From assembly GCA_010093485.1 (NCBI GenBank), contig MU001503.1, positions 703,132-767,131 of the forward strand: a stretch of DNA of 64,000 nt, written 5' to 3'. Position numbers and translations under genes: made by a program. The notes under the pieces are model-generated. The model searched no databases. It was not told the origin of the DNA and was given only the letters and a program-made list of their open reading frames with translations. Positions 2,861-59,990 of this stretch are shown here, piece after piece; the first letter of the stretch is position 1, and each line of letters opens with the position of its first letter. Source of the DNA: Karstenula rhodostoma CBS 690.94 (taxonomy: Eukaryota; Ascomycota; Dothideomycetes; Pleosporales; Didymosphaeriaceae).

Positions 2861-3667
2861 TATCTATATACTAAAACCTATATATTAGAACTTATTATAG
2901 TACTATTATATAAATTAAAACTCCCTTATTTAAATAGTAATATACTTAGTATAGATTATATTTATATTATAATCTATTCTAATTAGTAAAAATAGATAAA
3001 AGACTAGAAATTAAATTATATACCTTCTAAATATCTAATTAGAAAGGCTTTAGTAAACTCTTATAAAGCCTTAAAAGTACTTAATTAAAATTAGAAATTT
3101 AGATAGCTAAGATTATAATAAGTAATTTTTTATATAAGTCTTAAAAATAATAGCTTTCTAGAAAGGAGCTTAGTAGAATTTTAATATTATTTAATTTAAT
3201 AAAGAGTAATAGCTATATATAATTAGCTTAAAGGTATAATAATAAACTATAATAATTTACTATCTAGCTTATAATAGTTCTTTTTTTTAGGCTTCTTAAA
3301 GGGGGGTTCTTTATAGGTAGCCTTATTTATAAGGTTTTTCTTAGGTACCTTACTACTAGTAGGAGTTTAAGTACTAGTTTACTTAATTTTTACTATAGTA
3401 GAAAGATTAGTATTAGGGTAAAAGTATATTATCCTTATATAAGTTATATCTATATAGTATTATATAATTATTAAGTTTTATATAATTACTAAGTATTATA
3501 TAATTACTAAGTATTATATAATTATTAAGTATTATATTATTAAAATATTATACTAGACCTATAAATAACCTACCTAAAATTAGCTAACTTAATACTTATA
3601 CTTATACTTAAATAATTATATACCTTTATTACTATCTTTTCCTACTCCTATATAATAGAGTATATTA

Positions 3668-3776
3668 TAGCCACTTTTTTAGTCACCCTTTATTTATATA
3701 TTAGTAAAGTATAACGCGCCTTTTTATCCCCCTTATATTATTAATTTACCCGCCCTTATAGTAATTGTATATAATA
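3668..3776 (+). mobile_element. short SINE-like retroposon, copy A (109 bp)
   Basis: A 109-bp insertion flanked by an exact 12-bp target duplication, tagagtatatta, at 3,656-3,667 and 3,777-3,788. Its core (TTAGTAAAGTATAACGCGCC, then a C-run) is shared with copies at 9,403, 21,919, 23,082 and 23,991. This is the shortest copy: it starts at TAGCCACTT and lacks the outer 5' sequence seen in longer copies, while the other end (CTTATAGTAA plus an AT tail) is retained. Confidence 0.75.
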
Positions 3777-6545
3777 TAGAGTATATTAAGTATAAATTAT
3801 CTAAAACTTTACTCTTTAATACTCTAATTTCTAATAGATTTATATATAAAGAGTTCTTTATACTAATAGAAATATTATTCTAGTTTTTTATTATAGCTAT
3901 TACTAATTTATATAGGGTTAGACCTCTAAAGCTAATAAACTTAGCTAAATCCTTATACTCTATAATTAAGTTAATTTTAAAAAAGGCTATTCTATAAATT
4001 TTAAGTTAATATATAAAAGTAAACTTAATATAAATAATTATATAATTTAGTAAAGAGATTATACTACTTTTTATTTTAAAAAAGACTAAGTTATTAAGAA
4101 AGCCTAGGCTTTAGATTATTAAGTAAGAGTCTAGTTTAAGAAGAAGCTATAGAAGAATTCTAAGTATAATACCTTATTAAAGATAGATAAAGCTATAATA
4201 TTTAAGAATAAATAAAAGAGTAAGGCTAAAAGGTATTTTAATAAATAGAAGAGTAGTTAGTATTATTATAAATTTTTATTATATCTCCTTACTTTTTAAT
4301 AGTTAAATAACTTAAGTTAAAGCTTTCCCTTATTTATAAGAAATAGGCTAATATCTAAAATAAAATTAACTAAAGGGCCTTTAATAATATAACTAAGAAA
4401 CTAGTAATTATAATTTTATTTTCTACTTTAAATAAGCTTTTAAGTTATAGTACTACTTAGGTTTAGGGCGCTAGTAGTATATTAGATAAAATTAAGTATA
4501 AAGTCTATTAAAAAGGAAAGAAAAAGTTTAATACCTACTCTTTTAAGAATACTAAAGAGAAGGCTAAATATTTATAATTTATATAACACTTTTTACCTAA
4601 AGAGATAAAAATAGTATTTAAAAATAAGTTTAAGTAAGTTATTATTAGAGTTTTATTATATATATATACTAATTATAATAGGAAACTAAAGCTTCTAGCT
4701 ATACTAGTAATAAAAGGTAAAGCTAAGAATACTAATAATATATATACTAAATTTAGGAAATATAAGTATAATAAGAAAAAGAATTAAAACTTAAAAATTA
4801 AGGTAATATATAGTAAAGGTAAAGATACCTATAATAAAAATATTCTAAGTAGTAATAATAATTAAGAGGATAATAATAAAGAGGTTAATAATAAAAAGGA
4901 GAATAGTAAAGAGTCTAGATTTAAGGGCTTTAATAATTAAAATATATTTTATATATTCTAATATATAGATAATACTTAGTATTAATTATAGCTAGTTATT
5001 ATATACTTATAGTTATATAATACCCTATTCTAAAAAATACTATAATATTCTAATTAATATTCTAATTAATATAGTAATATATATACTACTCCCTAAACCT
5101 ATTATATTCTCTAGTTATTACCTTTCCTCTTTTTTAAAGATCTTGTTACCTTCTTACTTTATTTAATATAGTAATTCTTAAGCCTAATTTAGGTAAAAGC
5201 CTATTCCTAGAACTTTATTAATTTAAACTTAATATAACCTATATTACTATAAAAAGAGAAAAATAAATTATAAACTTTCTTTAATACCTTTAATATAATA
5301 ATACTAAGATTTTTATAAGTAAAAGAATCTATAAAAGATAGGAAGCCTAGTAAAGAAATATAGCTTATACTAAAAAATTTATTAATTTTTACCCTTATTA
5401 GAATAGTAACTTATATATAGGTACTATATAGAGGTAGTTTAGTAAAGTTATAAATATTTCTAATAGTTATCTATTTATATTCTATTATAACTATAGTTTT
5501 ATACTTATATATTTAATTCTAAAAAGTATTAGTACTAAGTATATATTTAACTATTATAATATAAAGTAGTATAAAACTATTATAATAGCTATTTACTTTA
5601 AATTATATATAATAACTTCCTATTCTACTACTATTAGAAATTCTAAACCTACTAAGATACTACTATTATTAAGAAAAATATTTAGAAGTAAGTTAGTATA
5701 TATTATTATTAATAATAACTAGTCTTTTTACTTAGTTAAGTAACTATTTTTCTAGTATTTTCTTAAATTTCTTAAGCTAGATATTAAAAGAATTAGTTAA
5801 TATAAATATAAACTTATATTTAAAGAGGAGTTTATTAAAGTTAAAGTAGAGCTCCTTTATAACCTTAGTAAAGAGACTAAAATATCTTTTACTCTTAATA
5901 TATAGTCTATAAATAACTATCTTAGTTTTCTTACTATTAAAAAATTATTATATTAATAATAACTAGTAACTTTAGTATAAGTTACTTAACTTTATTCTAA
6001 TTTATAAAAGGTATACTAGTATCTCTATAGTAATAGAAGTACTTTAAGTATTATTAGCTATAAATATAAGATAGTAACTACTAGTAGTTACTTATAATAA
6101 TACTAGTAATAATACTATACTAGCTATAATACTTTAAAATAAGCTCTAAGTAGTAGGTATAAAGTAAGAGTATATAAAGAATATAATTCTATACTTTACT
6201 TATATTATTAATCTTATTATTTAGAATATTATCTAGTACTTTAAACTTTCTACTTTAAATAAAATAGAGGCTATAAAGACCCTATAAAAGTACTATATAA
6301 ATAATATTAAATTATAAATATTAGTACTAAACTCCTTCTATAAGGTAAGTAGGTATTATTATAATTATTTATTATAATTTCTTATTACTAATTAAAGTAA
6401 TATAGCTTTATACTATTTATATTATTATTAATTATTTATTATAATCTTTTAAGCGCTTTATCCTTATATAAAAGGATAAAGAGTTAAAGAAGTACCTCTT
6501 TATTATATATAATATAAAGACTTAATAGAATTTAATATATAATAT

Positions 6546-6751
6546 TATAGTAGAGAAAAGGAGCTTAAATATCCCTTTATTTAGGGAGTAAATTAATTAG
6601 ATTACTATATAAGAAAAGATTTCTAGAAAGGCTAGTTATATACTATACTTATCTTAAATTAGTTTAGTACTTAGGTTAAAGTACCCCTTATTATAGCTAA
6701 TTAAAGCTCTATAAACCCTAATATTACTAAATATTATTTATATTTTTAATA
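6546..6751 (-). repeat. Copia 3' LTR (copy 2)
   Basis: A 206-bp LTR near-identical to 15,246-15,451 and to the reverse complement of 38,236-38,440; differences are mainly RIP-type transitions. Confidence 0.85.
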
Positions 6752-9402
6752 TACCCCTTAGGTAAATAGCGCTTATTATTTATCTACTAGTAGAATTTAA
6801 TTATTTAAATTAGCTTCTTTTAGAAATATATACTTTAGACTATAATTTCTTACTTATATTATACTATTATTAATATTATAATACTAATTAGCTAAGATAA
6901 GAGGCTTTTAGTACTTAGTATAGTACTTATAAATAATAGTAGTCTTATAACTAAGTATAGTAAATAATAGAAAATAAAGTAAGTAATTATTATATAGTAT
7001 AAACTAGTAAAAGTAAATAAAATAAAAAGGTATTTTTTATACTTTTTAAACTTTTCTTTTTTATTCTTATTATTTTATTTTATAGTATATTTTTACTTTT
7101 TACTTTTTAATACTCTACTTATACCTTTTAGATAGCTAATAATACTAATAAAGCTCGCGCTACTAAAGTATATAAATAAAAAAAGAGACTTAAAGCTAAA
7201 TAAATAACTACTACTAAAAAGTTTACTATAACTCCTTAAATAACTTATTAATTTAGTTACTTTTCTATTTAATCTATTCTTTATACTTTTAGCTAAGCTT
7301 TTTTATTAGTATTATATACTCCCCTAGTTATAGAAAAAAATTATACTAAGGCTATCTAACTACTAAGCTACCTTAACTATTTAAATAATACCTTAAGTAG
7401 TAGATTAGATAGCCTCTATTATAATATTATAAACTAGTAAATAAACTACTACTTTTACTATTATATATACTTATATAAATTAATATAAGCTAGATTCTTT
7501 ATTTATCTAGTTAAGTTTTACTAATTATTATAGTCTACTATTTCTAGCTATATATATAATATACTTTATCCTATTCTATAATAATTTAAACTTTATTATA
7601 AGTTTTTTTTATTTTTTTTTATTATTTAGATTCTTACTAATTATATATAGGCTTATAAGATTAATTATTTATAATAGTATATTTAAGCTATACTAAGGGA
7701 TTAGAATAAAAGTTAAAAGACTTATTTTATATTTTTATAAAACTTTTATTTAATAACTAGCTTTTTTTCTACTTTTTTTATTTTTATCTTTACTCTATCT
7801 ACTCTTATTCTACTTTTATTTACTTCTATCTCTACTTCTACTACTCTTATCCTTACTTTACCTACCTTCTAATAGGTCTACTCTATAAATAGCTAAGAGA
7901 TAGACTTATAAGAGGCTATATATACTTTTAAATATAGTATACTTACTTCTTATAAATACTATACTTTAGAGTAAGAAGCTCTATTTCTATAGTTAAAATT
8001 ATAATTATATTTTAGTAAGCTACCTTCTATAGAATAATACTACTAAATAGTATAATAATATATCTATAAAATAATTATCTTATTAGTAAATTATTTATAA
8101 AAAATATATCTTTATAGATAAGTAGATTTAAACTATTATATTTACTAAACTAAATTACTTTTTAGTATATTTTATAGAGGTATAGAATTACTTAATTAAT
8201 TACTACTTTATACTTTATACTTAGATTAGTAAGGAAAAAGAATAGCTTTAATATAGTAAATATAATATTTAATTATAGTATAATTACTATATATAATATT
8301 AATCTAACCTTCTTTTAATAGCTTTTAATTTACTATAGTAATACTTTATCTTTACTCTTTTTAAACTTATTAATTAAGAGAGGAGTAGGTAGAAAGCTAC
8401 TAGCTTTATAAAGCTTAAATTTATTTATAATTTTATTAATATATATATTATATATAAGTATAATTATCTAATTATCTTAGTCTCTAATTACTTATATTTT
8501 AAAAAACTACTTAACTAGTCTTTTATTTTTAATTTTATATTTATTTATAACCTTATTTTATAGTATTTAAGCTTACTTTCTATAATTATTATAATATAGA
8601 AGTAGTATATTATCTATATAGAATAGTACTAGGATTTTCTAATCTTTAAAAAGAAATAAATAAGGCTCTTTTTTTAAAGCTTTAAACCCTTTAGCTCTAA
8701 GTAAGTAGGAAAACTCTTTATACTAAAGAAGTACTAAGTCTTTTAAACTATAAAAAGCTTAATTTAATTTTATATATATTTTTAGTATCTTAAACCTATT
8801 TAGAAGTTTATAGGATATAAGATTATTTACTATAATTATAGTATTTAGGAATATTCCTATAATATTATATTATTTAATCTTAAAGTTAAACTTTATAGTA
8901 ATTATTATTATTACTTAGAATTACCTTACTATAAATATAGTAGTATAGGTTAAGTATAAGATATTCTTTAGTTAAAAATCTTTTCTAATTATTATATAAG
9001 CTTTATAGTTTTTAAATTAACTATTCTAATTAAGCTTATATATAAATACCTATTTTAATAGGAGTAGGTATTTTATTATTTATAATTAGAGTAGCTTTAT
9101 CTAAGTTTCTTTCTACTATAAAGTAGTAATTTCTTTAATTATAGCCTATTTAAATAGTTTTTCTAAATAATAAGAAAATAGATATTTCTAAAGTATTAGT
9201 TTTATTAGTAACTTATCTTTATATAGATAAGTTAGTAATATTACTAGTTTTAATTTCTTAAATATAGCTATTATAACTATTATATTTAGTATTTTATAGT
9301 TTTTATACTTATTCTAGGTTTTATCTACTCCTAGTATAAATATATATATAAAGTTAATCTAGAAACTATTTTTTAAAAATAAATTTACTATTAGTATATA
9401 TA

Positions 9403-9524
9403 TTGTAGAGATTCACTATAAGGTAGGGTAACTTAATAAAGTAGGGGGGATAAAAAGGCGCGTTGTGCTTTTACTAATACACGAATAAAGGGGAACCAAA
9501 AAAGTAACTAAGACACGCCTAGCG
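9403..9524 (-). mobile_element. short SINE-like retroposon, copy B (122 bp)
   Basis: An insertion in Copia copy 2 with an exact 13-bp target duplication, attagtatatata, at 9,390-9,402 and 9,525-9,537. The empty site is visible in the + strand Copia copy, where the 13-mer occurs once at 34,873-34,885 in reverse complement. The insert retains CpA and TpG (TATTGTAGAG, GCGTTGTGC, ACACGAATAA) while its host has practically none, so it is probably younger than the main mutation of the host or too short to be recognised by RIP. Confidence 0.85.
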
Positions 9525-11749
9525 ATTAGTATATATATACTAAAATTTAATTTACCTTTTAGCTAATTATTATAATTTATATTTTATTATTTTAACCTTT
9601 AAACTAGTAAATACCTACTTATTAGTTAGTTAATTTTAGATATCTTTTCTTAAAGTTATCTACTTACCCTACTTACTATAAAGAAGATATACTATTACTT
9701 TTAATTTATTAGTAGATTTTCTATTTTATTTAGTAGTATAGTGTTAGTTCTACTAAGTTAAGAAGTAGTAGTAGGGCTTTTAAACTTTTACTTTAAAAAA
9801 GTATTATTCTAAGGCTCTAGTTTACTAGCTTTTTTAATTAAGTTTTAATTTTAGTAATTTCTAGTATTTTTATAATTATATTAATTAGTCCCTATAATAT
9901 CTAGCTATAGTATTATATCTAGAGTTATAAGTCCTATACTTAAATCTTAGCCTATATAAATTCCTAGCTACTAGCTAGCTATACTTATAACTTATATAGT
10001 AGTTAGTATTATTACTTTCTAATTCTTTAGCTAGCTATTTTTAGAATCTATCTATTTTAATTCTTTACTTTTAAGTAATTACTTAATATCCTTAATTCTT
10101 ATAGTACTTATATATTTATTTAAGCTAGAAGTAAAATTAATTATATTAAATATATCTTCTAGATTATTAACTTTATCTTTATAAATACTTTCTATAATTC
10201 TTAAAAATTTTACCTTTAGAAGCTTTACTTTATATACTCTCTAGTAGAAGGTTATCTTATTAAATATAATATTTCTAGTTATAATTACTTAATTAAGTAT
10301 AGGAACCTATATTCTATAAATATTAAAAGCTTAATAGTCTATTAAATACTTAATATAAGCTTTTAAATTTATTTTAAATCTCTTTCTATTATATCTAGCT
10401 TTATAATCCTTTATTAGAGAATATATTTAGTATCTATAGGTATAAATTCTACTCTAGTTTAGGTAGAGATCTACTATTATATATTATATAATTATAAGCT
10501 TATAGTACTAAAAGTATTATTAAAACTAGTTATCTAATATTTTATTTAGTAATTAGAAGCTATATACTATACTTAGACTTATATTATATAGCTAGACTAC
10601 TATATTTATAATTTCTAGCTATAGCTTTATTAGTAGATTTATACTAGACTTTATTTTTATTATTTATTTAATTAGCTCTTTTTTAGTTTACTCTACTAAA
10701 CTATTAGTTTTATATATATAAGGGAGTAAAAGGTTAATTATAATTCTTTTTTTAATTACCTATTTTTTATATTATAATATCCTTTACTATAGGAGTATTA
10801 CTATATTATTATTCTACTAAATTTATATAATTTAGAGCTAGTACTTATTCTTTATAAAGGTTAATATATATTTTATTAATTATAAAATCTCTAAAAGTAT
10901 TTTTCTTTATAAATTAAAATTATAGAACTTCTTACTAAATTCTTCTTTTATTATAAGAATTTAGGATTTAAGTATTTATTCTTACTCTATATTAAATAGG
11001 TCTTATATAATATAGTAGAATAGATATAGTAAGTACTTATATAGTTATTATAAAATTATCTTATTTATATATATAACTATATAGTACTTATATTCTTATT
11101 ATTATATTCTTTTAATTAATATACTATATACGCTAGAAACTAGAGCTTATAAAGCTTTCTTTCTAAAGTATTCTAATTACTTATACTATAGTTCTTTACT
11201 ATCTAAGTAGGAGATATTCTCTCTTAATAGCTTAGATAGTTAAATTATATTTATAATAGTAGAATAAGAGTATATAGACTTATATTTTAAAAAAGTAAAA
11301 TTATACTTATACTATAAATCTACTATTATAATACTTTATTTAATTATTTTAATTTTTAGAGTATTATTTAAATTAAAATACTAAATACTAACTTTTTTAA
11401 GTTAAGCTTTTAAAATAATATTTATATAAAAGTTCTTAACTATTTTAATATCTTTAAGTAGTAGATTCTCTAATTATTTTCTATTTTTATTATAAAGAAT
11501 ATTTTTAATTAAGTAATTCTTTATTCTTAAAATAAGTAGAGCTTATATTTCTATTTTAACTTAGTTTTCTATTATTACTTTCTTAAAAGAACTAGTAACT
11601 AGAAGATTCTAATTATTAATAAAATAAATAGTAACTATACTATCTAGAATTATACTTTTAGAAAGTAGATAAGAATTCTATATTATATTATAGATTCTAT
11701 TCTTAGAAACTTTACTTAAAAGGTTAATTAGATTAATAAGAGCTACTAT

Positions 11750-14700
11750 TAGCCTAGATCCTAATCTAGGCCTATAGGACTATACAGTATACTTATAATA
11801 AGAGAGAGACCTTTTTATCCTTCTTTAATACTTATTTTATATATTTTTATACTTTTTTAATTATTAGTATAATACTAACTATTATTTAAATACTAATTCT
11901 CCTACTTACTTATACTTACTAATATTTTTAACTTTTACTTATAGCTTATAGCTTATAGCTTTATATATTACCCTATTACTATTACTATTACTATTAATAC
12001 TACCTACCTATTATTAGTATTAATATTATCTATATATTATTACTATTAATATTACTTACTTATTATTACTATTAATATTACCTACTACTTCTTACTTTAC
12101 TTACTACTATAGGGTAGCTATTACCTACTCTATATTTATTAACTATATAGATTATTTTAACTTAATTATAATTATCTTTACTATAAGGTTTAGCTCTTCT
12201 TAGCCTTTAAGAACTATTATAATTATCTCTTACTACTTAGTAGTAAAGTTCCTATTCCTAGTTAACTATTATAAAAGTAATTCTAGTAAGCCCTAAGTTA
12301 GTAATACTATATATATATATATATATAAGAAACTTACTAATAGACTCTATAATTATATAGTCTATAGCTATAACTTATAATATCTATATACTAGGTTAAT
12401 TATTATACTAATAGAAGTTAACTTAATAGAGGATATATTTAACTTTATAAAAGTTTATATTATTTAGATTTATACTATATATAGAATTAGTACTACTACT
12501 AGTATATATAAGGTTATATTTATTACTAATAATTAGTTACTTATTATTAGCTATTTTAATAGAGATATAGTATAGGTCTCTTCCTATAAAAGCTAGCCTT
12601 TATATATAGTACTATAAGTTACTTACTATTAGTAGGTAACCTCTCTTTTATATTCTTTTTTAAATTGCGATATTATTAATATATAATATCCTTAATATTT
12701 TATAATATTTTTAATATTTTATAACTTCTCTATAATTATATATTAGGTATTAGTAAATAAGGAGCGTACTACCCTACTAGTATTATATAGTATTATAGTA
12801 TTATAGTGTTATAGTACAGTGTTATATATCGTAATATTATATAATACTTATATAGGTTAATACTTAGTTAATTAAGCCTAGTACTATAGGCGCCCTTTTT
12901 TCTCTTTTATTATAAATAGTACTATTCTTTAGAGCTATTTAATAGAACTATATAGTACCTCTAGATATTTCCTTATTACTAGGTAGTTATAATAGTAACT
13001 TTATATTAAAAAAAAAAAAAAAAAAAGTAAAGATTAAACTTTAACTAGTATTATATATATTTTAAAGGCTTTAATATATAGTATTTTTTAATATATTATT
13101 ATTCTTTAAGCTATTTAAAGACGCTTAAGCTTATAGTAAAAAACTTAAAAAGATTATATAAATTAAATACCCTAAATACTAACTANNNNNNNNNNNNNNN
13201 NNNNNNNNNNNNNNNNNNNNNNNNNNNNNNNNNNNNNNNNNNNNNNNNNNNNNNNNNNNNNNNNNNNNNNNNNNNNNNNNNNNNNNNNNNNNNNNNNNNN
13301 NNNNNNNNNNNNNNNNNNNNNNNNNNNNNNNNNNNNNNNNNNNNNNNNNNNNNNNNNNNNNNNNNNNNNNNNNNNNNNNNNNNNNNNNNNNNNNNNNNNN
13401 NNNNNNNNNNNNNNNNNNNNNNNNNNNNNNNNNNNNNNNNNNNNNNNNNNNNNNNNNNNNNNNNNNNNNNNNNNNNNNNNNNNNNNNNNNNNNNNNNNNN
13501 NNNNNNNNNNNNNNNNNNNNNNNNNNNNNNNNNNNNNNNNNNNNNNNNNNNNNNNNNNNNNNNNNNNNNNNNNNNNNNNNNNNNNNNNNNNNNNNNNNNN
13601 NNNNNNNNNNNNNNNNNNNNNNNNNNNNNNNNAATAGTTTCTAAATTTAGATTTATTATATATTTTAGTATAAGCCTAGCGCCTAAGCTAATTATATTTA
13701 TTTAATATTTTTAATTATATAGTAAAGATCTAAATAGATTATATCCTTTTTTTTAAAAAGAAGTTAGAAGAACTAAATAAGTTTCCTATAATATATAGAC
13801 TTTTAATATAGTATAATAGTTCTTTTTTTTTTTTTTTTTTTTTTATAAAGTTACTATTATAACTACCTAGTAATAAGGAAATATCTAGAGGTACTATATA
13901 GTTCTATTAAATAGCTCTAAAGGATAGTACTATTTATAATAAGAGAGAAAGAAGGGCGCCTATAGCGCTAGGCTTAATTAACTAAGTAGTAACCTGCCTA
14001 TATATATTATATAATATAGTAACACTACAACGCTATAATACTATATAATACTAGTAAGGCAGTATACTCCTTATTTACTAATACCTAATATATAATTATA
14101 GAAAAGTCGCGAAATATTAAGGATATTATAAAATATTAATAATATTATAATTTAAAAAAGAATATAAAAGAGAGGTTACCTATTAGTAGTAAGTAGCTTA
14201 TAGTACTATATATAAAGGCTAGCTTTTATAGGAAGAGACCTATACTATATCCTACTCTATTAAAATAGCTAATAATAATAAGTAACTAATTCTTAGTAAT
14301 AAATATAATATAGTATATACTAGTAGTAAGTCTATTAGTAACTTAGATATATCTAATTATATATATTATAAGATCTAATATATTATCTAGTAAGTTAACC
14401 TCTATTAGTATAATAATTAATTTAATATATAAATACTATAAGTTATAGCTATAGACTATATAATTATAAAGTCTATTAGTAAGTTTCTTATATATATATA
14501 TATATATAGTATTACTAACTTAAAGTAGAATTACCTCTATAGTAGTTAACTAGGAATAGGGACTTTACTAGTAAGTAGTAAAAGCTAATTATAATAGTTC
14601 TTTAGAGTTAAGAGGAACTAGACTTTATAGTAAAGGTAATTATAATTAAGTTAAAGTAACCTATATAGTTAATAAATATAGAGTAGGTAGTAGTAGTTTT

Positions 14701-15035
14701 ATAGGATATATAAGGAAGTAGTAGGTAATATTAATAGTAATAATAGGTAGGTAATATTAATAGTAATAATAGGTAGGTAGTATTAATAGTAATAGTAATA
14801 GTAATAGAGCGATATACTAAGCTATAAACTATAAACTATAAGCTATAGATAAAAGTTAAGAATATTAGTAAGTATAGGTAAGGAGAGTTAGTATTAAATA
14901 ACTATTAGTTAGTATTACACTAATAATTAAAAAAGTATAAAAATATATAAAATAAGTATTAAAAAAGGATAAAAAGCTCTCTCTTATTATAAGTATACTA
15001 TATAGTCCTATAGGCCTGGATTAGAATTTAGGCTA
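11750..15035. mobile_element. foldback element with inverted arms longer than 1 kb
   Basis: Two long inverted arms, about 11,750-13,026 and 13,823-15,035, flank a spacer that contains a 447-base assembly gap. The outer ends are TAGCCTA...TAGGCTA, followed inward by a small palindrome (GCCTAGAT-CCTA-ATCTAGGC on the left). The arms end inward in an oligo-A run on the left and an oligo-T run on the right. They carry tandem trinucleotide-like tracts (about 11,975-12,090 and 14,720-14,815) and a (TA)n run. No coding trace was found. It sits in Copia copy 2 at a point where about 1 kb of Copia is missing. Related pieces lie at 16,441-19,000, 19,086-21,257, 56,555-56,800 and 59,487-59,990. I do not recognise the family. 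Confidence 0.75.
13186..13632. other. assembly gap (447 N)
   Basis: A run of N in the spacer of the foldback element. A gap at the centre of a long palindrome is expected, since such structures are hard to sequence and assemble. The true spacer content and length are unknown. Confidence 0.99.
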
Positions 15036-15245
15036 GATAGAGTTTACTTAGAAATATAAGCTTATAAACTAATAAGACTAGCTTATTTAATTAATAAGCT
15101 AGGTCTAAGTAACTAAAATAGTTAGATTACTTATAGCTTTATTAAATAAAGGCTTTTAGTATAATAGTAGTATTTAAGAGAGTATATTTAAGTAGTAAAG
15201 TATATAGAAAGAATTATTCTATATTCTAAATACTAGACTTATAAC

Positions 15246-15451
15246 TATAGTAGAGAAAAAGAGCTTAAATATCCCTTTATTTAGGGAGTAAATTAATTAG
15301 ATTACTCTATAAGAAAAGATTACTAGAAAAACTAGTTATATACTATACTTATCTTAAATTAGTTTAGTGCTTAAGTTAAGGTACCCCTTATTATAGCTAA
15401 TTAGAGCTCTATAAACCCTAATATTACTAAGTATTATTTATATTCTTAATA
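15246..15451 (-). repeat. Copia 5' LTR (copy 2)
   Basis: A 206-bp LTR. The leader sequence on its left (15,036-15,245) matches the leader of copy 1 (about 2,116-2,331). Confidence 0.85.
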
Positions 15452-16440
15452 ATAATAAATATATATATAGATTATTAAATTTAAAGTTAATTATAAGTAA
15501 TAAAAATAAAATTTTAATTTATATCTATTTATTATATAATATCTATTAATAGAATAATTTAGTTACTATATTATATAGGTAATCTAGATAGGTATACTAC
15601 CCCTACCCATATCTATACTTTAACTATCCCTACCTAACTATAACCTATACTTTAACTATTCTTACCCTAACCCCTACCTAGGGTCTATATAATTCTAATC
15701 TAACCTATATATAAGTATAAATATACCTAACCTATTTACTAGTCTATAAAGAGTTAATAAAATATTAAAAAAAATAGTTTTTATTAGAACTAAAACTAGA
15801 AAAAGAATATATATATAGATATTACTACCTATATTATTTTTTTCTATTTTATACTCTAGTTATTAATAGTATATAAGAAAATATAATTAAAATACCTATT
15901 TCTAGTATACTATAAATTCTACTTAATAGTATAATATAATATTTATAGTTTTTAGACTTACTAATATATTATCTATACTTTAGAATTAACCTAACTAATA
16001 AATCTATATAGGTAATAATATACCCTATTATATATAGTAATAATAAATAAACTTAAACTTTAGCTAAAAAGTAGTTTTAAATTAGGGGAATAATTATATT
16101 ATTCTTAAAAAATAAAATCTATAAAGTTAAAACTTCGTTTAAATAGTAGTAGTAGTAAAAGATATATATAGATATATTTAAAGCCCTTAAATTATATAAA
16201 ATAGACTAAGTTATAATAAAATATTTAAAAGAGACTTAGGTTTATCTATAGATATAAAAGATCTAGGTGGTTAAAATATACTATAATAAAAAAATAGAGA
16301 TAGAAGAGAATAAAAAATTTATAATAAAAATAATAAATAATAAAATAAATATCTACTAGATATAAAAGATTCTATATAGTATAGTAAATATATAAATAAA
16401 GAAAAATCCTAAGTTTTATTTTAAATTTTAAGTATAGAGC
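15452..16440. other. unclassified AT-rich sequence
   Basis: About 1 kb with no recognisable element. A C-rich patch at 15,598-15,680 contains two imperfect copies of CTATACTTTAACTAT followed by C-rich runs. No coding or RNA signal was seen. Confidence 0.5.
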
Positions 16441-19000
16441 TAGTCTGGATTCTAATCTAGAGCTATAGGACTATATAGTATACTTATATAAGAAAAAAAC
16501 CTTTTTATTTTTTTTAGGTAATAACTTTTTGGTAACCTATTTTAGATATTCGGCAACCAATTTGGATTTTCGGCAACCCACGCCAAGACTAAGAAATATT
16601 AGTAATCTAAAATATTAGTGTTATAGAGCTAGATTTATAGACTATTTTATAATTTTAAACTCTATTATAATACCTTATAGTGTAGTAGTTATTAATAGTT
16701 TAAGTAGTAGTTTCTATTAATAGACCTATTTATATTTAAGTAATATAAATAGATATATAAGGATATTTCTAAACTAATAATTAGTTATTATATATCTAAA
16801 TATAATAAGTTTAGGAGTTCTATTTATAGTAGTATATATTAGTAGATATTATTATTTTTAGATAAAATCTCTATATTTAGATTATATACTATATATTAGG
16901 TATAGAATAAAACTAGAATATTAGTTCTTTTCCCCTCATTTTCTTACCTATTATAGGGTCTTAAAGTAAATAAGTATATTATATATAGGTATAGTTATAC
17001 TAAAAGTAATAATTTAGTTAAAACTTATAAACTTATTTATATACCTATAACTATACTAGCTATATAAAATATAAAAACAGTATAATATACTATACTTTAA
17101 TTACTATTACTTTAATATTTTAGATTAACTAAATTTAATACCTCCTAATCTTTACCTTCCTATTTTAGACTAGTGGGTTACCGAATATCTAAATGGGTTA
17201 CCGAGTATTAAAAATTGGTTACTAAAAAGTCGGTACCTTTTTTTAATACTTATTTACTTACTTTTAGACCTTTATTTACGCGATTTAGACCTTTCTTTTT
17301 TTATATATTTTTATACTTTTTTAATTATTAGTATAATACTAACTAATAATTATTTAATATTAATTCTCCTTATTTATATTTATTAATATTCTTAATTTTT
17401 ATCTATAGCTTATAGCTTACCCTATTACTATTACTATTATTATTAATACTACTTATCTATTATTATTATTAATATTACCTACTACTTTTTTATATATTTT
17501 ATAAAACTATTACTATCTACTTTATATTTATTAATTATATAGATTACTCTAACTTAATTATAATTATTTTTACTGTAAAGTCTAGCTTTTTTTAACTCTT
17601 AAGAATTATTATAATTAGCTTTTACTACTTATTAGTAAAGTTTCTATTTCTAGTTAACTACTATAAAGGTAATTCTATTCTAGATTAGTAATATTATATA
17701 TATATATATATAAGAAACTTACTAATAAACTCTATAATTATATAGTCTATAGCTATAACTTATAGTATTTATATACTAGGTTAATTATTATACTAATAGA
17801 GGTTAACTTACTAGATAATATATTAAATCTTATAATATATATAATTAGATATATCTAGGTTACTAATAGACTTACTACTAGTATATACTAGATTATATTT
17901 ATTATAAAAATTAGTTATATACTATTATTAGCTATTTTAATAAAGTAGGATATAGTATAGATTTTTTCCTATAAGAGCTAGCCTTTATATATAGTACTAT
18001 AAATTACTTATTACTAATAGATAACCTCTTTTTTATATTCTTTTTTAAATTATAATATTATTAATATATAATATCCTTAATATTTTATAATATTCTTAAT
18101 ATTTTATAACTTCTTTATAATTATATATTAGGTATTAGTAAATAAGGAGTATACTATTCTACTAGTATTATATAGTATTATAGTATTATATTATATATTA
18201 TACTATTATATAATACTTATATAAGTTAATATTTAATTAATTAAGTCTAGTACTATAGGTACCTTTCTTTTTTATTATAAATAGTACTATCCTTTAGAGC
18301 TATTTAATAGAACTATATAGTACCTCTAGATATTTCCTTATTACTAGGTAGTTATAATAGTAACTTTATATTAAAAGAAAAATTTTTTTTTTTAATTATT
18401 ATACTAATAAAAGTTAATTTACTAGATAATATATTAAATTTTATAATATATATAATTAGATATATCTAGATTACTAATAAACTTACTACTAGTATATATT
18501 ATATTATATTTATTACTAAAGATTAGTTATTTATTATTATTAACTATTTTAATAGAATAGAATATAGTATAGGTTTTTTTTTTATAAAAGCTAGTCTTTA
18601 TATATAATACTATAAATTACTTATTACTAGTAAGTAATCTCTTTTTTATATTCTTTTTTAAATTATAATATTATTAATATTTTATAACTTCTCTATAATT
18701 ATATATTAGATATTAGTAAATAAAGAGTATATTATCCTATTAGTATTATATAGTATTATAATATTATAGTATTATAGTATTATAGTATTATAGTATTATA
18801 GTATTACTATATTATATAATATATATAGATAGATTAATATTTAGTTAATTAAATCTAGTATTATAGGTACCCTTTTTTTTCTTTTATTATAAATAGTACT
18901 ATTCTTTAGAGCTATTTAATAGAACTATATAATACCTTTAGATATTTCTTTATTACTAGGTAGTTATAATAGTAACTTTATATTAAAAAAAAAAAAAGTA
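16441..19000. mobile_element. foldback-family arms, rearranged
   Basis: Starts with the foldback terminal sequence (TAGTCTGGATTCTAATCTAG) and runs inward like the left arm at 11,750 to an oligo-A/T stretch at about 18,375-18,395. A second, truncated piece of the same arm (18,396-19,000) follows in the same orientation instead of inverted. The first arm is split by a 721-bp element at 16,517-17,237. It looks like a recombined foldback copy that lost its right arm. Confidence 0.65.
16517..17237. mobile_element. 721-bp terminal-inverted-repeat element (MITE-like)
   Basis: An insertion into a foldback arm. Its ends are imperfect inverted repeats of about 64 bp: the left begins GGTAATAACTTTTTGGTAACC and the right ends AGTCGGTACC. 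Both contain repeated GGTAACC/CGGTAACCCA-type motifs. The flanks carry an 8-bp duplication, ttttttta, at 16,509-16,516 and 17,238-17,245, although the T-run makes this less decisive. CpA/TpG are retained at the ends (CGGCAACCAA, TTTGGATTTT, CACGCC), so it is less mutated than its surroundings. No transposase trace was seen. The 8-bp duplication would fit a hAT-related non-autonomous element, but that is only a guess. Confidence 0.75.
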
Positions 19001-19085
19001 TAGAGCCTATAGGGTAATATATAAAGAGTAAAGAATAAAAAAAAAAAAAAAAAATAAAAATAGTAGCTATATAAGGTTAGTATTT

Positions 19086-21257
19086 AATAATAGTAATAGT
19101 AATCTAGATTCTAATATAGGCCTATAGAACTATATAGTATACTTATAATAGAGAAGAGCTTTTTATCCTTTTTTAATACTTATATTATATATTTTTATAC
19201 TTTTTTAATTATTAGTATAATACTAACTAATAGTTATTTAAATACTAACTCTTTTATTTATTTATATTTACTAATATTTTTAATATTTATCTATAGTTTA
19301 TAGCTTATTACTTATCCTATTACTATTACTATTAATATTATCTACCTATTATTACTATTAATATTATCTACTACTTTTTACTTTACTTATTATAGGGTAT
19401 CTATTACTACCTCTATATTTATTAACTATATAGGCTTTTTTAACTCCTTAATTATAATTACCTTTACTATAAAGTCTAGCTTTTTCTAATTCTTAAAAAT
19501 CTCTATAATCTACTCTTACTACTTACTAGTAAAGTTTCTATTATTAGTTAACTACTATAGAGGTAATCCTACCCTAGGTAGTATTTATATACTAGATTAA
19601 TTATACTAATAGAGGTTAATTTACTAGAGGATATATTTAATCTTATAGAGATTTCTTAATAGACTTAGTTTTAAGTAGTAGATAAAATTAATAGTATATA
19701 TAAAATTATATTTATTACTAATAATTAGTTACTTATTATTAGCTATTTTAATAAAATAGAATATTCTAGTATAGATCTCTTTCTATAAAAGCTAGCCTTT
19801 ATATATAGTATTATAAGTTACTTACTACTAATAGGTAACCTCTTTTTTATATTCTTTTTTAAATTATAATATTATTAATATATAATATTTATAGTGTTAT
19901 AGTATAGTATTATATATTATAATATTATATAATACTTATATAGATTAATACTTAGTTAATTAAGTCTAGTACTATAGGTACCTTTCTTTTTTATTATAAA
20001 TAGTACTATCCTTTAGAGCTATTTAATAGAATTATATAGTACCTCTAGATATTTCCTTATTACTAGGTAGTTTTTTTTTTTTTTTTTTTTTATATAAAGT
20101 TACTATTATAACTACCTAGTAATAAGAAAATATCTAGAGGTACTATATAGTTCTATTAAATAGCTCTAAAGGATAGTATTATTTATAATAAGAAAGAAAG
20201 GTACCTATAGTACTAGGCTTAATTAATTAAATATTAACTTATATAAGTATTATATAATAGTATAATATATAATACTATAATATAATACTATAATACTATA
20301 ATACTATATAATACTAGTAGGATAGTATACTCCTTATTTACTAATACCTAATATATAATTATAGAGAAGTTATAAAATATTAAGAATATTAAAAAATATT
20401 AAGGATATTATATATTAATAATATTATAATTTAAAAAAGAATATAAAAAAGAGGGTACCTACTAGTAGTAAATAATTTATAATACTATATATAAAGACTA
20501 GCTCTTATAGGAAAAGACCTATACTATATTCTACTTTATTAAAATAGCTAATAATAGTAAGTAACTAATTTTTTATAATAAATATAATCTAGTATATACT
20601 AATAGTAAGTCTATTAGTAACTTAGATATATCTAATAATATATATTATAAAATTTAATATATTATCTAGTAAGTTAACCTCTATTAGTATAATAATTAAT
20701 CTAGTATATAAATACTATAAGTTATAGCTATAAACTATATAATTATAGAGTCTATTAGTAAGTTTCTTATATATATAGTATTACTAATCTAAGGCTTACT
20801 AGAATTATCTCTATAGTAGTTAACTAGGAATAGGGACTTTACTAATAAATAGTAAGAGCTAATTATAATAGTTTTTAAGAATTAAAAGAAGCTAGACTTT
20901 ATAGTAAAAGTAATTATAATAAAGTTAGAGTAACCTATATAATTAATAAATATAGAGTAGATAGTAGTAGCTTTATAGGATATATAAGGAAGTAATAGAT
21001 AATATTAATAATAATAATAGGTAAGTAATATTAATAGTAATAATAGATAGGTAGTATTAATAGTAATAGTAATAGTAATAGAGTAATATACTAAGCTATA
21101 AGCTATAAGCTATAGATAAAAGTTAAAAATATTAGTAAGTATAGGTAAAAAGAATTAGTATTAAATAACTATTAGTTAATATTATACTAATAATTAAAAA
21201 AGTATAAAAATATATAAAATAAGTATTAAAAAAGAATAAAAAGCTCTCTCCTATTAT
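19086..21257. mobile_element. foldback element, near-palindrome of about 2.2 kb
   Basis: The left arm 19,086-20,070 and right arm 20,091-21,257 are inverted copies meeting at a 20-bp oligo-T centre, so almost no spacer exists. Sequences at 19,092-19,200 reappear inverted at 21,130-21,250. The left arm lacks some blocks of the right arm (near 19,583 and next to the centre). The right end lacks the outermost about 45 bp and abuts element X. Confidence 0.75.
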
Positions 21258-21918
21258 TATTTATAATAAATAAAGTAAGGAAGTGAATTATTATAGTAGA
21301 GCTTTTATATAGCTAGCTAAACCTTAGGGCTATATATTACCTAATTAGAATAGAGGATTTTAGGCTTTCTATTAGCTAAAAAAAGGTTCTTTATATATTC
21401 TAATTAGTCTTTAAGATATAATATAATAATATTTCCCTAAATACTAATATAACTAATATATTATCTATAACTACTCTAGCTATAGAATATTAAATTTAGC
21501 TATATATTTTTAAATATTTATTTAGTATATAATTCTTCTTTAGGTATTAGTTTAGCCTAATACTAAATAATACTTTAAAAATTTAATTTTTTTTTTTATT
21601 TAATTTAATTTATTTTCTTATCTATCCTTTTACTATAATACTATTATAATATTTAACTTTAATTATATTTCTAGTAATTTTATACTATTTTCTTTATTTA
21701 CCTTACTTTCCTCTAAAATATTCTATACCTATAAAATACTATTTATATCCTTTATTTCTATAGTATTTCCTAATACCTTCTAATAGAGTAGAAGTCCTCC
21801 TAGTACTAAAGTGCCTATTATATATAATATAGATATACTTATCTAGAATAATATTATAGCTATAATATATAAAATAAAGTATAGATATTCCTTCTTATTA
21901 TTATTTTAACTAATATTA

Positions 21919-22071
21919 TACCCTTTTTAGTTAGCCTATATATAGACGCTAGGTAAGCCTTAGCCATTTTTTTAGTCCCCCTTTATTTATATATTAGTAA
22001 AGTATAATATACCTTTTTATCCCCCCTACTTTATTAAGTTACCCTACCTTATAGTAAATCTCTATAATATA
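21919..22071 (+). mobile_element. short SINE-like retroposon, copy C (153 bp)
   Basis: Inserted in X copy 1 with a 12-bp duplication, taactaatatta, at 21,907-21,918 and 22,072-22,083. The empty site occurs once in X copy 2 at 41,783-41,794. The 5' end is TACCCTTTTTAGTTAGCC; the 3' end has the conserved ACCTTATAGTAAATCTCTAT and a short AT tail. It is the most RIP-mutated copy. Confidence 0.85.
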
Positions 22072-23081
22072 TAACTAATATTAATAGGGATTTATAGATA
22101 CTATTACCCCCTAAATTTACCTACCCTAAAATTATAATATTATACCTTTTTATATTAAAAAGTATACTATTATCCTATATATCTTTACTAGTAAACCTAT
22201 TATATACTACTATAGATACTATAAAATACTTTTTTTATAATATTTTACTTCTTTATTAGTATATCTTTCTTAAGTACTATATAATTATTATAGAATAGTA
22301 TTAGTAGTATAAAAAGTATTTTAATAATTCTAATTAGAAATATATTTTTTTTATAAGGTTCTAGAGCTCTAAAAATAGGCTAAGTAGTACCTTTATAAAA
22401 CTAAGTAATTTAATTTTATTATAAAAGATATTATTCTCCCTTTCTTTTAAAATTATATAAATAATAGTAAATAAAAGTATTTCCTCCTATAATAGATTAT
22501 ATTTTTAAATTAGTATAAAATAAACTTTTAAAATAGATTAGTTATATCTAGCTTCTTTTTTTTTTATATATATTCTTATTTAATATATAAACTAATATCT
22601 ACTTTATAAATATATTTTTATATTATACTACTTATTCTAGCTATATACTATCTTTTTATTAATTAGTAATAATAGGCTAGGAACCTATACTACTCTACTA
22701 TAAATATAGTTATCTATTTAATCTAGTTCTTAATATCTTTATAAATAGAAAACTAAAGAAATACTATATATATTATAAATAAAAATATTCTTTATTAACT
22801 CCTATTATATTTTTTTTTAAATACTATATTATTAGTAGGGCTACTAATACTATAACTTAACTATATTTTATATTTTATATTTTATTATTTTTACTAAGTC
22901 TTTTATAGCTCTTTACCCTAATAAGACTAACTTTATAAAGTTTATTTTAGAATAACTATTATTTATTATATAAAGCTTATTAGATTCCTCTTCTAATATT
23001 CTCTTTTAGACTAAATATAATATAATTAATACTATATACTTCTTTACTATTATATATAAAGAATTTAGATATAAGATCTAT

Positions 23082-23237
23082 ATATTATATATAATTACTA
23101 TAAGGGTAGGTAAATTAATAAAGTAAGGGGGATAAAAAGACGCGTTATACTTTACTAATACACGAATAAAGGGGGACTAAAAAAGTGGCTAAAACTTACC
23201 TAGTATCTATATACAGGCTAACTAAAAAGGGCGTAGC
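23082..23237 (-). mobile_element. short SINE-like retroposon, copy D (156 bp)
   Basis: Inserted in X copy 1 with a 12-bp duplication, tataagatctat, at 23,070-23,081 and 23,238-23,249. The empty site is at 42,781-42,792 in X copy 2. In element orientation it starts GCTACGCCCTTTTTAG. CpA/TpG are partly retained (ACACGAATAA, AGTGGCT, TACAGGC). Confidence 0.85.
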
Positions 23238-23990
23238 TATAAGATCTATTTAATTTATAATAGTATAAATATTTATTTATTCTACTTCTATATTTCTAAG
23301 TTTATAAATATTAAATAAAATATTAAACTTTACCTCCTCTAATAGTCCTATATCTAATTATAGTAATAAAAATAATAAAAATAAATTTAATAATAAGAAC
23401 CTCTTTATAAAAAACTTTATAATTATTAAAAACTAAATATATTAGTAGAATTCTCTTATTTAGTAACTTTTAGATTTTATAAACTTAGACTATTTATAGA
23501 AACCTATACTTCTACCTAAAGAATTAAACTATATATTAGTATTCTATTAGAAGCTTAAAAATATTTAAATAAATACTTATTTTATTTATAATTACTAGTA
23601 ATTTAACCTCTATATTATCTAGGGAGAGTATAATAACTATTACTAGAATTAAATAAAAAATAATAAACTAGATTTTATTCTATTATATAGGAGTAGAAAT
23701 AATATAAATTTAAAATATTTATTTTTATTATTACTACCTTTTACTAATATAGAAGAATACCTACTTATTTAGATCTAAGTTATTATAGAGATATATACCT
23801 ATAAGAGGGCCTAATACTATTATTATAGCTATATTTATAATTTTATTATTAATATAGTAATATCTTTTTCTTAACTTCTATAGTTTTTTTAAGAGGTTAA
23901 GATTATTATCCTAAAGCCTATTTAAATTAAAGGGGATAACTTAGATTAAATTAATTACTAATTTAAAAAGGATAATTATATATATATTAT

Positions 23991-24209
23991 AGAGATTTAC
24001 TATAAGGTAGGGTAACTTAATAAAGTAGGGGGGATAAAAAGGCGCGTTATACTTTACTAATATATAAATAAAGGGGGACTAAAAAAGCGGCTAAGGTATA
24101 CCCAGCGTCTGTGCACAGGCTAACTAAAAAGGGCGTAGTGCTAAGCTAACTAAAATGGGATTAGCGCGTGCCCGCTAATATATAAGAAATCTAACTATAG
24201 AGAATTTTA
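23991..24209 (-). mobile_element. short SINE-like retroposon, copy E, longest (219 bp)
   Basis: Inserted in X copy 1 with a 10-bp duplication, tatatattat, at 23,981-23,990 and 24,210-24,219. The corresponding X copy 2 sequence (about 43,518-43,535) lacks it. It carries more 5' sequence than any other copy, including GCGGGCACGCGCTAATCCCA and GCCTGTGCACAGACGCTGGG in element orientation. CpA/TpG are dense here compared with the near absence in the host. No clear RNA polymerase III A and B boxes or tRNA-like fold were found. Confidence 0.85.
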
Positions 24210-25290
24210 TATATATTATTCTATTATATAGTAATAATTTTTATTCTTAGTTACCTATTATTCTAGCTACTAAAATATTATTATTAACTATAAAACTCTT
24301 ATATTTCTTTATATTAATAATTTTATTAAGTAGTAACTAAAGGTTTTTTTATTTTAGTTCTAAAGACTCTAGTTCTAGTTAAATAATTAATATTATATTT
24401 AATACCTTTTTTAGCTAGTAGTTTTATTCTTTAAATATAGGTAGTATACTACCTAGTACTACTTTTATATAAGGAGAAGGTAAGAGTATATATAATAGTA
24501 ATAAAAAGACTAGTACTAAAAATAATATATATAAAAATAAAAATAAGCTTTTAAAGATTTTAGCTATATTTAATTTAGATATAGCTATTTTTAAATTTAA
24601 ATTTTTTTAGAATTAAATTTATTTTTATACTAGTTATATTTACCTTTTTATAAAAGCTATTTACTTAATACTAATTATTAAGTTTACTAGAAGTATTTAC
24701 TACCTAAGTTTTATATTTCTTTTACTATACCCTACTAGTATAGGTAATTATAATAAGTCTTATTTATAAAAAGTTAATTTTATTATCTATATATATTACC
24801 TTTTTTATTATAAAAATAGATATTTTATTTACTATTTTTAATTTTAGTTTACTTTATTTAATATAATAATATAGAAAGTATCTATAATATAGGCTAATTT
24901 TATAGTAAAATAAAATATTAATAGTCTTTTATTATAAGCTAAAAATATTTAGACTACCTTTTTAGAGTCTAATTAAAGAGTATTACTAATTAACTCTATT
25001 ATTTATATAGGTATCTAGCTCTAAGGAATATAGTTATACTAGTAATAAAAAAATAGAAAGCTTAATACTATAATAAGTTATTATAACTTTAACTATTTAA
25101 TACCTACCTAATATTTTCTAAATTAAGTAGTTAAAAAACTCTATTTTATTTATTATTTTTTTTATTACTAATAACTTTTAGTATAATCTCCTCTAGTTTA
25201 TACTATAATTTAAGGAGTAGTAAGTAGTAACCTTAAATATATAAAGAAGACTTACTTAGGATTTTCTAAAAGAATATTTTTATATTATAG

Positions 25291-59486: not shown

Positions 59487-59990
59487 TAGTATTATAGTAT
59501 TATAATATTACTATATTATATAATATATATAGATAGATTAATATTTAGTTAATTAAGTCTAGTATTATAGGTACTCTTTTTTCTTTCTTTTTTATTATAA
59601 ATAGTACTATTCTTTAGAGCTATTTAATAGATCTATATAGTATCTCTAGATATTTTCTTATTACTAGATAGTTATAATAGTAGCTTTATATTAAAAAAAA
59701 AAAAAAAAAAAATAGTAATAGGAATATATAGTATTTAATTATAAAATATTAAATATAAAAGTTTAGTATTATATTAATAGTAAAATAAAATAATAAAAAT
59801 TATAATATAGTTAACTAGTATTTAGCTATAATTAGTAGTTTTTAATAGACCTTAACTAGTTCTAGGAAAAGATAGTAATTAAATAAACTTAATTTAGCTA
59901 AATAAGAATTTTAAATAAATAAATAAAAAGGTAACTAACTAATAGTAGCTATTATAGTTATATAGGCCTAGATTAGAATCTAAACTAACT
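59487..59990. mobile_element. foldback-family arm fragments
   Basis: 59,487-59,712 matches the arm-proximal part at about 18,775-18,990 and ends in an oligo-A run. A separate terminal piece (TATAGGCCTAGATTAGAATC) lies at about 59,960-59,982. The sequence between is unassigned. Confidence 0.6.

What the first reader, a model, noticed from the sequence alone, without database searches (positions are those of the whole stretch)
3656..24219. A short SINE-like retroposon family with five insertions, one conserved end and variable truncation
Copies at 3,668-3,776, 9,403-9,524, 21,919-22,071, 23,082-23,237 and 23,991-24,209 share one end (CTTATAGTRAAT plus an AT tail) but stop at different points on the other: 109, 122, 153, 156 and 219 bp. 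Each has its own target duplication of 10-13 bp, and four of the five have an empty site in a paralogous transposon copy here (34,873; 41,783; 42,781; about 43,520). Variable 5' truncation with duplications of unequal length points to target-primed reverse transcription, as for SINEs and LINEs, rather than a cut-and-paste element. I recognise no described family.
Basis: partly seen in the sequence, partly recalled or inferred. Interest (0 to 1): 0.78.

Follow-up and report, generated by a model that had tools for sequence, protein, structure and literature searches.

The report
Truncated fungal retroposon copies

Summary
All five copies are real and share one end. Each lies between direct repeats of about 12-17 bp, and four (B-E) have an uninterrupted paralogous site in the window. 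The genome matches Karstenula rhodostoma CBS 690.94 (Pleosporales); its AT-rich DNA carries RIP-type mutations.

The "short SINE of 109-219 bp" reading is incomplete. The copies are 5'-truncated pieces of an unnamed element of about 1.29 kb without a reading frame. It has a fixed 5' end, (GG)CCGGCGTTAGTCAGTCACC in the least mutated copy, and a fixed 3' end, CCTTATAGTGAATCTCTACAATATA. Pattern counts: 479 main 3' ends, 131 variant 3' ends (the type of A and D), 376 places reaching about 155 bp, 143 reaching about 260 bp, 114 5' ends; reversed-pattern controls 0.

A fixed 3' end, scattered 5' ends, variable duplications and no inverted ends point to target-primed reverse transcription. No RNA polymerase III head was found, though RIP limits that test. 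One LINE protein query matched five places, and no LINE 3' sequence in hand shares the tail. So this looks like a non-autonomous retroposon whose LINE partner is unidentified. The few short copies fetched from GC-richer DNA are nearly free of RIP. It is a new family of a known kind.

The parts
3668..3776 (+). Copy A, 5'-truncated (starts near model position 1177), variant 3' end; duplication ATAGAGTATATTA at about 3655-3667 and 3776-3788
9403..9524 (-). Copy B, 5'-truncated (starts near 1171), main 3' end, fewest C>T/G>A changes of the five; 14-bp duplication at about 9390-9403 and 9525-9538; empty site 34872-34885
21919..22071 (+). Copy C, 5'-truncated (starts near 1140), main 3' end; 12-bp duplication TAACTAATATTA at 21907-21918 and 22072-22083; empty site 41783-41794
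23082..23237 (-). Copy D, 5'-truncated (starts near 1140), variant 3' end; duplication TATAAGATCTAT at 23070-23081 and 23238-23249; empty site near 42777-42811
23991..24209 (-). Copy E, longest of the five (starts near 1064-1073), main 3' end; about 17-bp duplication at about 23975-23991 and 24207-24223; empty site 43519-43535
59710..59948 (-). 5' end piece of a long copy (model 1-244), ending at an oligo-T run that belongs to a second repeat family
15667..16441 (-). Diverged long relative (model 320-1184, poorly aligned after about 1080); its last ~200 bp do not show the family 3' end
18997..19106 (-). Internal piece (model 226-330) next to the second repeat family; may belong to the same old copy as 15667-16441 (inference)

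Best explanation
The repeats are 5'-truncated copies of one non-LTR retroposon of about 1.29 kb with no visible reading frame. Its RNA is reverse-transcribed starting from its fixed 3' end at a nicked AT-rich target (target-primed reverse transcription). Most reverse transcripts stop within about 260 bases; some run to the 5' end. Repair leaves a duplication of about 11-18 bp. Shown: fixed 3' end, fixed full-length 5' end, scattered truncation, duplications, four empty sites, copy numbers. Inferred: the RNA intermediate, and that the enzyme is supplied in trans by a LINE not yet identified. Afterwards long copies are mutated by RIP; the short copies fetched from GC-richer DNA are not.
For: In 328,047 bp (fetched loci plus window) the profile gave 96 hits; 80 reach the 3' end, of which 26 start at model 1-2 and 54 at points from 514 to 1209 (a few of the 54 are cut by a segment edge or an insertion). 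Genome-wide: 479 main and 131 variant 3' ends, 376 reaching about 155 bp, 143 reaching about 260 bp, 114 5' ends; reversed controls all 0. Of 58 pairs of 5' and middle patterns 55 lie 920-1080 bp apart, so full length is constant (100 of 114 and 100 of 143 places were listed and used). Duplication scores: median 12.6 against 7.6 for flanks taken from other copies; 47 of 78 copies exceed the null's 95th percentile, 19 of them full-length, with lengths of 11-18 bp. Four empty sites. Little-mutated copies have the same anatomy. 11 of 26 full-length copies have GG just before the first conserved base, and 9 more AG or GA, which would fit cap-templated bases partly changed by RIP (inference).
Against: No LINE with the same 3' end was found: one LINE protein query matched five places, and the LINE sequence in hand does not match the element; 3' ends of three of the five were not reached. 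The LINE that does have several truncated copies here ends in oligo-A, not AATATA. Truncation is not even: few copies end between about 260 bp and full length, which could mean separate short transcripts. 31 of 78 copies did not exceed the duplication null, and in AT-rich DNA some listed repeats will be lengthened by chance.
Confidence: 0.82

Rival explanations
1. A true short SINE of about 150-230 bp lies at the 3' end of the long element and is transcribed on its own; the long element is a chimera that acquired this tail.
For: Counts fall from 376 to 143 between about 155 and 260 bp, then only to 114 over the next kilobase (the patterns allow different mismatch numbers, so ratios are rough). 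5' ends gather near model 1063-1075 (6 copies) and 1131-1140 (8 copies). The diverged relative at 15667-16441 keeps the body but not the last ~200 bp.
Against: Truncation points between and beyond these clusters also occur; no tRNA or Rfam-recognised head was found in the sources scanned; short-biased truncation is usual for LINEs (recalled).
Confidence: 0.25
2. The 1.29 kb unit is the 3' untranslated part of an autonomous LINE whose coding copies are lost or not reached, not a separate non-autonomous element.
For: In this same genome the 3' region of the LINE at C20 exists as several separate RIP-mutated copies of about 1.2 kb, a parallel case.
Against: The 26 full-length copies in hand start within a few bases of one point, with unlike flanks upstream, 19 of them with a duplication above the null threshold. 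LINE sequence fetched at C20 and C4, and the parts of C26 and C17 in hand, do not match.
Confidence: 0.25
3. Solo LTRs or LTR fragments of the LTR elements that fill the region.
For: Reverse transcriptases of LTR type lie close by: L076 has a Gypsy-type RNase H beside its reverse transcriptase over the curated cut-off; in the window and L079 that match is weak.
Against: A constant 3' end with many 5' truncations and duplications of 11-18 bp is not LTR integration (4-6 bp, recalled); the five loci that hold both show no consistent order or strand.
Confidence: 0.04
4. Cut-and-paste MITE or other DNA transposon with internal deletions.
For: Small, non-coding, AT-rich, high copy.
Against: No inverted repeat is seen between the 5' end (GGCCGGCGTTAG...) and the 3' end (...CTACAATATA); only one end is conserved; duplications vary from 11 to 18 bp.
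Confidence: 0.02

Closest known systems
Fungal SINEs (MgSINE, mgsr1, Foxy, Egr1, egh1/EGH24, nrs1, AfuSINE2 and AfuSINE3)
   Same: Dispersed short elements; AfuSINE2 has duplications of 4-14 bp; several are long (mgsr1 800 bp, Egr1 700 bp, EGH24 900 bp) (passages of PMC5063351)
   Different: The passages give MgSINE and AfuSINE2 as tRNA-derived and AfuSINE3 as 5S-derived; no such head was found here. The full-length unit here is about 1.29 kb and mostly 5'-truncated. No sequence comparison with any of them was possible.
Non-autonomous LINE derivatives (RIME/SIDER of trypanosomatids, HAL1 of mammals; recalled)
   Same: Little or no coding, LINE-type insertion, 5' truncation
   Different: Those are tied to a known LINE; no partner was found here.
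LINEs of filamentous ascomycetes (Tad1 type, recalled) and the LINE-like loci at C4, C20, C26, C17, C9 here
   Same: Candidates for the trans-acting enzyme; target-primed insertion
   Different: They encode reverse transcriptase (endonuclease too at C4, C20, C26); the element does not, and no shared sequence was found with the parts in hand.

Membership tests
SINE | RNA polymerase III promoter from tRNA, 5S or 7SL RNA | tested here: inconclusive
   None found: no tRNA in the window or 8 loci; no Rfam match at gathering score in L015, L018, L008, L026 and window; no box B in one 530-bp little-mutated stretch of L031, which covers only the 3' part of the element. RIP could have erased a box near the 5' end, and no unmutated full-length copy was seen.
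SINE | Short full length (usually under about 700-900 bp; recalled) | tested here: not met
   Model of 1292 positions; 21 aligned copies run 1188-1335 bp; constant spacing of 5' and middle patterns
SINE | 3' end shared with a partner LINE | tested here: inconclusive
Target-primed retroposon in general | Fixed 3' end with variable 5' truncation | tested here: met
Target-primed retroposon in general | Duplications of variable length | tested here: met
   11-18 bp in the 47 of 78 copies above the null threshold; four empty sites
LINE | Encodes reverse transcriptase | tested here: not met
   The majority sequence has 31-77 stops per frame and no open stretch over 54 aa. RIP adds stops, so an old frame cannot be wholly excluded.
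MITE | Terminal inverted repeats and constant duplication | tested here: not met
Described fungal repeat family | Sequence match to a library entry | not testable with these tools
   No Repbase or Dfam and no collection of fungal genomes was available

The most novel reading that the evidence does not exclude
An orphan retroposon that outruns genome defence: the long form is mutated by RIP, but most of its insertions are cut to under about 260 bp, below the size that RIP is known to detect in Neurospora (recalled). So intact short copies keep accumulating in gene-rich DNA, possibly made from their own short transcripts, without any remaining LINE that shares their tail.
Probability: 0.3. Interest if true: 0.58.

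Novelty: new member of a known kind. Interest (0 to 1): 0.42.

Why it matters
It adds a large, unnamed retroposon family (about 610 places by two 3'-end patterns) to a fungal genome, and gives a natural length series for asking how short a repeat must be to escape RIP. It also poses a checkable question: which enzyme copied several hundred elements in a genome where one LINE query matched five places and none is yet seen to share the tail?

Tried and rejected
Rejected: MITE (no inverted ends, variable duplications) and solo LTR (no link to LTR-type reverse transcriptases). Not found: a tRNA or Rfam-recognised head. Tried without result: an ordered link between the element and nearby reverse transcriptases (five loci hold both, without consistent order or strand); the LINE-like loci in hand as partner; a stable hairpin at the 3' end (the two little-mutated 3' ends fold no better than shuffles, z +1.9 and +1.1, the weak side); a coding frame; the second repeat family as a relative of the element (alignment score 59 against nulls of 33-45, in AT-rich sequence, not taken as homology). 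Literature: (species name; 10 of 16 papers listed) gave taxonomy and one manganese paper; some searches gave mostly general fungal or other transposon papers; some searches were mostly unrelated; one search found none. No paper on this element was seen in these listings. Only passages of PMC5063351 were read; all other papers were seen as search listings with the start of the abstract. A search of phage records with the NSUN5-like protein was uninformative.
Full report
Where it is. The window is C12:703132-767131 of a 44.3 Mb genome in 29 contigs. The NSUN5-like protein at 61765-63228 is identical to one of Karstenula rhodostoma CBS 690.94 on a contig of the same length, 1,867,176 bp. G+C is 16-22% up to about 60 kb and 52-53% beyond it. 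Against a little-mutated reference (L092) the five window copies show 13-26 C>T/G>A changes and 0-1 reverse transitions; transversions are 0-1 in B, C and E, but 7 and 11 in D and A, whose 3' end is a variant. This pattern is the mark of RIP (from knowledge).

The observation. The five copies exist as described. Both flanks of B, C, D and E align to one uninterrupted paralogous site, with overlaps of 14, 12, about 12 and 17 bp. For A no paralogue of the flanks was found in the window.

The element is longer than the window shows. A genome search with copy E gave 679 first-look candidates; the 40 that were scored gave 44 matches. Many continued upstream of E's end. Stepwise extension ended at a sharp 5' border shared by most of the long copies, (GG)CTAGTATTAGTTAGTTACC after RIP and GGCCGGCGTTAGTCAGTCACC in the least mutated one, L049. 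A model from 21 long copies has 1292 positions. In 80 merged segments (328,047 bp) it gave 96 hits. Of the 80 that reach the 3' end, 26 begin at position 1 or 2 and 54 begin at points from 514 to 1209; a few of the latter are cut by a segment edge or an insertion. Most loci were fetched by similarity to the element, so the share of long copies among them is not representative.

Genome-wide counts. RIP-tolerant patterns gave 479 places for the main 3' end, 131 for the variant 3' end of copies A and D, 376 for model about 1136 (two mismatches allowed, one elsewhere), 143 for model about 1032 and 114 for the 5' end. The reversed-pattern control gave 0 in each. The patterns differ in length and tolerance, so ratios are rough. 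Among the listed places (100 of 114 5' ends, 100 of 143 middles) 58 pairs could be formed, and 55 are 920-1080 bp apart; 42 listed 5' ends had no listed middle, and 42 middles no 5' end within 2.5 kb. So full length is constant, while most copies are cut to under about 260 bp.

Duplications. Of 81 hits reaching model 1285, three lacked flank and were left out. For the other 78 the best direct repeat scored a median of 12.6, against 7.6 when the upstream flank came from another copy; 47 of 78 exceeded the null's 95th percentile. In those 47 the length is 11-18 bp, and 19 of them are full-length copies. The 31 that did not exceed it include copies with interrupted or AT-only surroundings. Examples in GC-richer DNA: L015/L031, about 507 bp long, has TATCTAACAA on both sides, found by eye and by string search; the automatic search missed it because its 5' end lies upstream of the model alignment. 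L094 has TATAAATGC on both sides.

How it works. One constant 3' end, scattered 5' ends, duplications of unequal length, no inverted ends and no coding frame are what target-primed reverse transcription of a passive RNA leaves. Of 26 full-length copies 11 have GG before the first conserved base, and 9 more AG or GA, which would fit copying of the RNA cap (inference). The enzyme is the open point. RVT_1 matched 105 times, and 30 were fetched as loci. Of three RIP-mutated ones scanned, L076 has a Gypsy-type RNase H over the curated cut-off (25.1 against 24.8 bits) and the window copy and L079 only weak matches (E 0.02 and 0.0027); the rest were not classified. A LINE protein query matched five places, on C4, C20, C26, C17 and C9. 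The element does not match the C4 or C20 LINE, including about 0.9 kb of 3' sequence beyond each first locus, nor the parts of C26 and C17 in hand. The C20 LINE does have several truncated RIP-mutated copies here, but four of the five 3' ends looked at carry a long run of A.

RIP and length. The 40 best of 510 candidates match the little-mutated copy L092 at 93-100% over about 130 bp (the first row is L092 itself). Three of them were fetched (L093-L095): all are short, with 1 C>T/G>A change at 61 C/G sites in L093 and L094 and none in L095, which lies in AT-rich flank. The 507-bp copy in GC-rich DNA has 8 of 61. Median shares are 0.43 for 26 full-length, 0.40 for 16 intermediate and 0.34 for 37 short copies (copies starting after model 1165 were left out). 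This fits escape of short copies from RIP, whose detection needs roughly 400 bp or more in Neurospora (recalled). But most short copies in hand lie in AT-rich DNA and are mutated too, so region matters and the test is not clean.

What it is. It works like a non-autonomous LINE derivative or long SINE. As tested it fails one defining feature of a SINE (short full length); the polymerase III head was not found, but that test is weak; and it lacks the coding capacity of a LINE. I therefore file it as a new family of non-autonomous non-LTR retroposon, not as a SINE. Whether it matches a named fungal repeat could not be tested.

Noticed in passing
window 11751-13026 (+), 13823-14956 (-), 17295-18382 (+), 18392-18997 (+), 20071-21223 (-), 59485-59712 (+): A second repeat family, most 3' ends with a run of A. 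One copy (11751-13030) aligns to the end and 3' region of the LINE at C20 (RIP-tolerant scores 93.5 and 163.5 against nulls up to 41). Two of three 5' flanks looked at begin at a palindrome at the end of that LINE's reading frame.
   Followed up: partly
G000:C4:2654286-2657702 (L062): A LINE-like endonuclease and reverse transcriptase in an open frame of 1279 aa in DNA of normal GC: possibly intact or kept by the host. A little-mutated short copy of the present element lies about 1 kb away.
   Followed up: partly
C8:1009991 segment, positions 1175-1924: Nested insertions: the second family sits inside a long copy of the present element, and a short copy of the present element sits inside that insert, giving a relative order of events.
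   Followed up: partly
window 21.6-24.5 kb and 41.5-43.8 kb; 9.1-9.8 kb and 34.6-35.2 kb: Paralogous repeat copies, 87-92% alike over the 300-bp flanks compared, which provide the empty sites; what repeat they are was not worked out.
   Followed up: partly
G000:C15:526405-526728 (L078) and C19:444628-445041: Two further reverse-transcriptase matches in open frames; the first looks like telomerase and the second (991 aa) may be a cellular rvt-type gene (both recalled, not tested).
   Followed up: no
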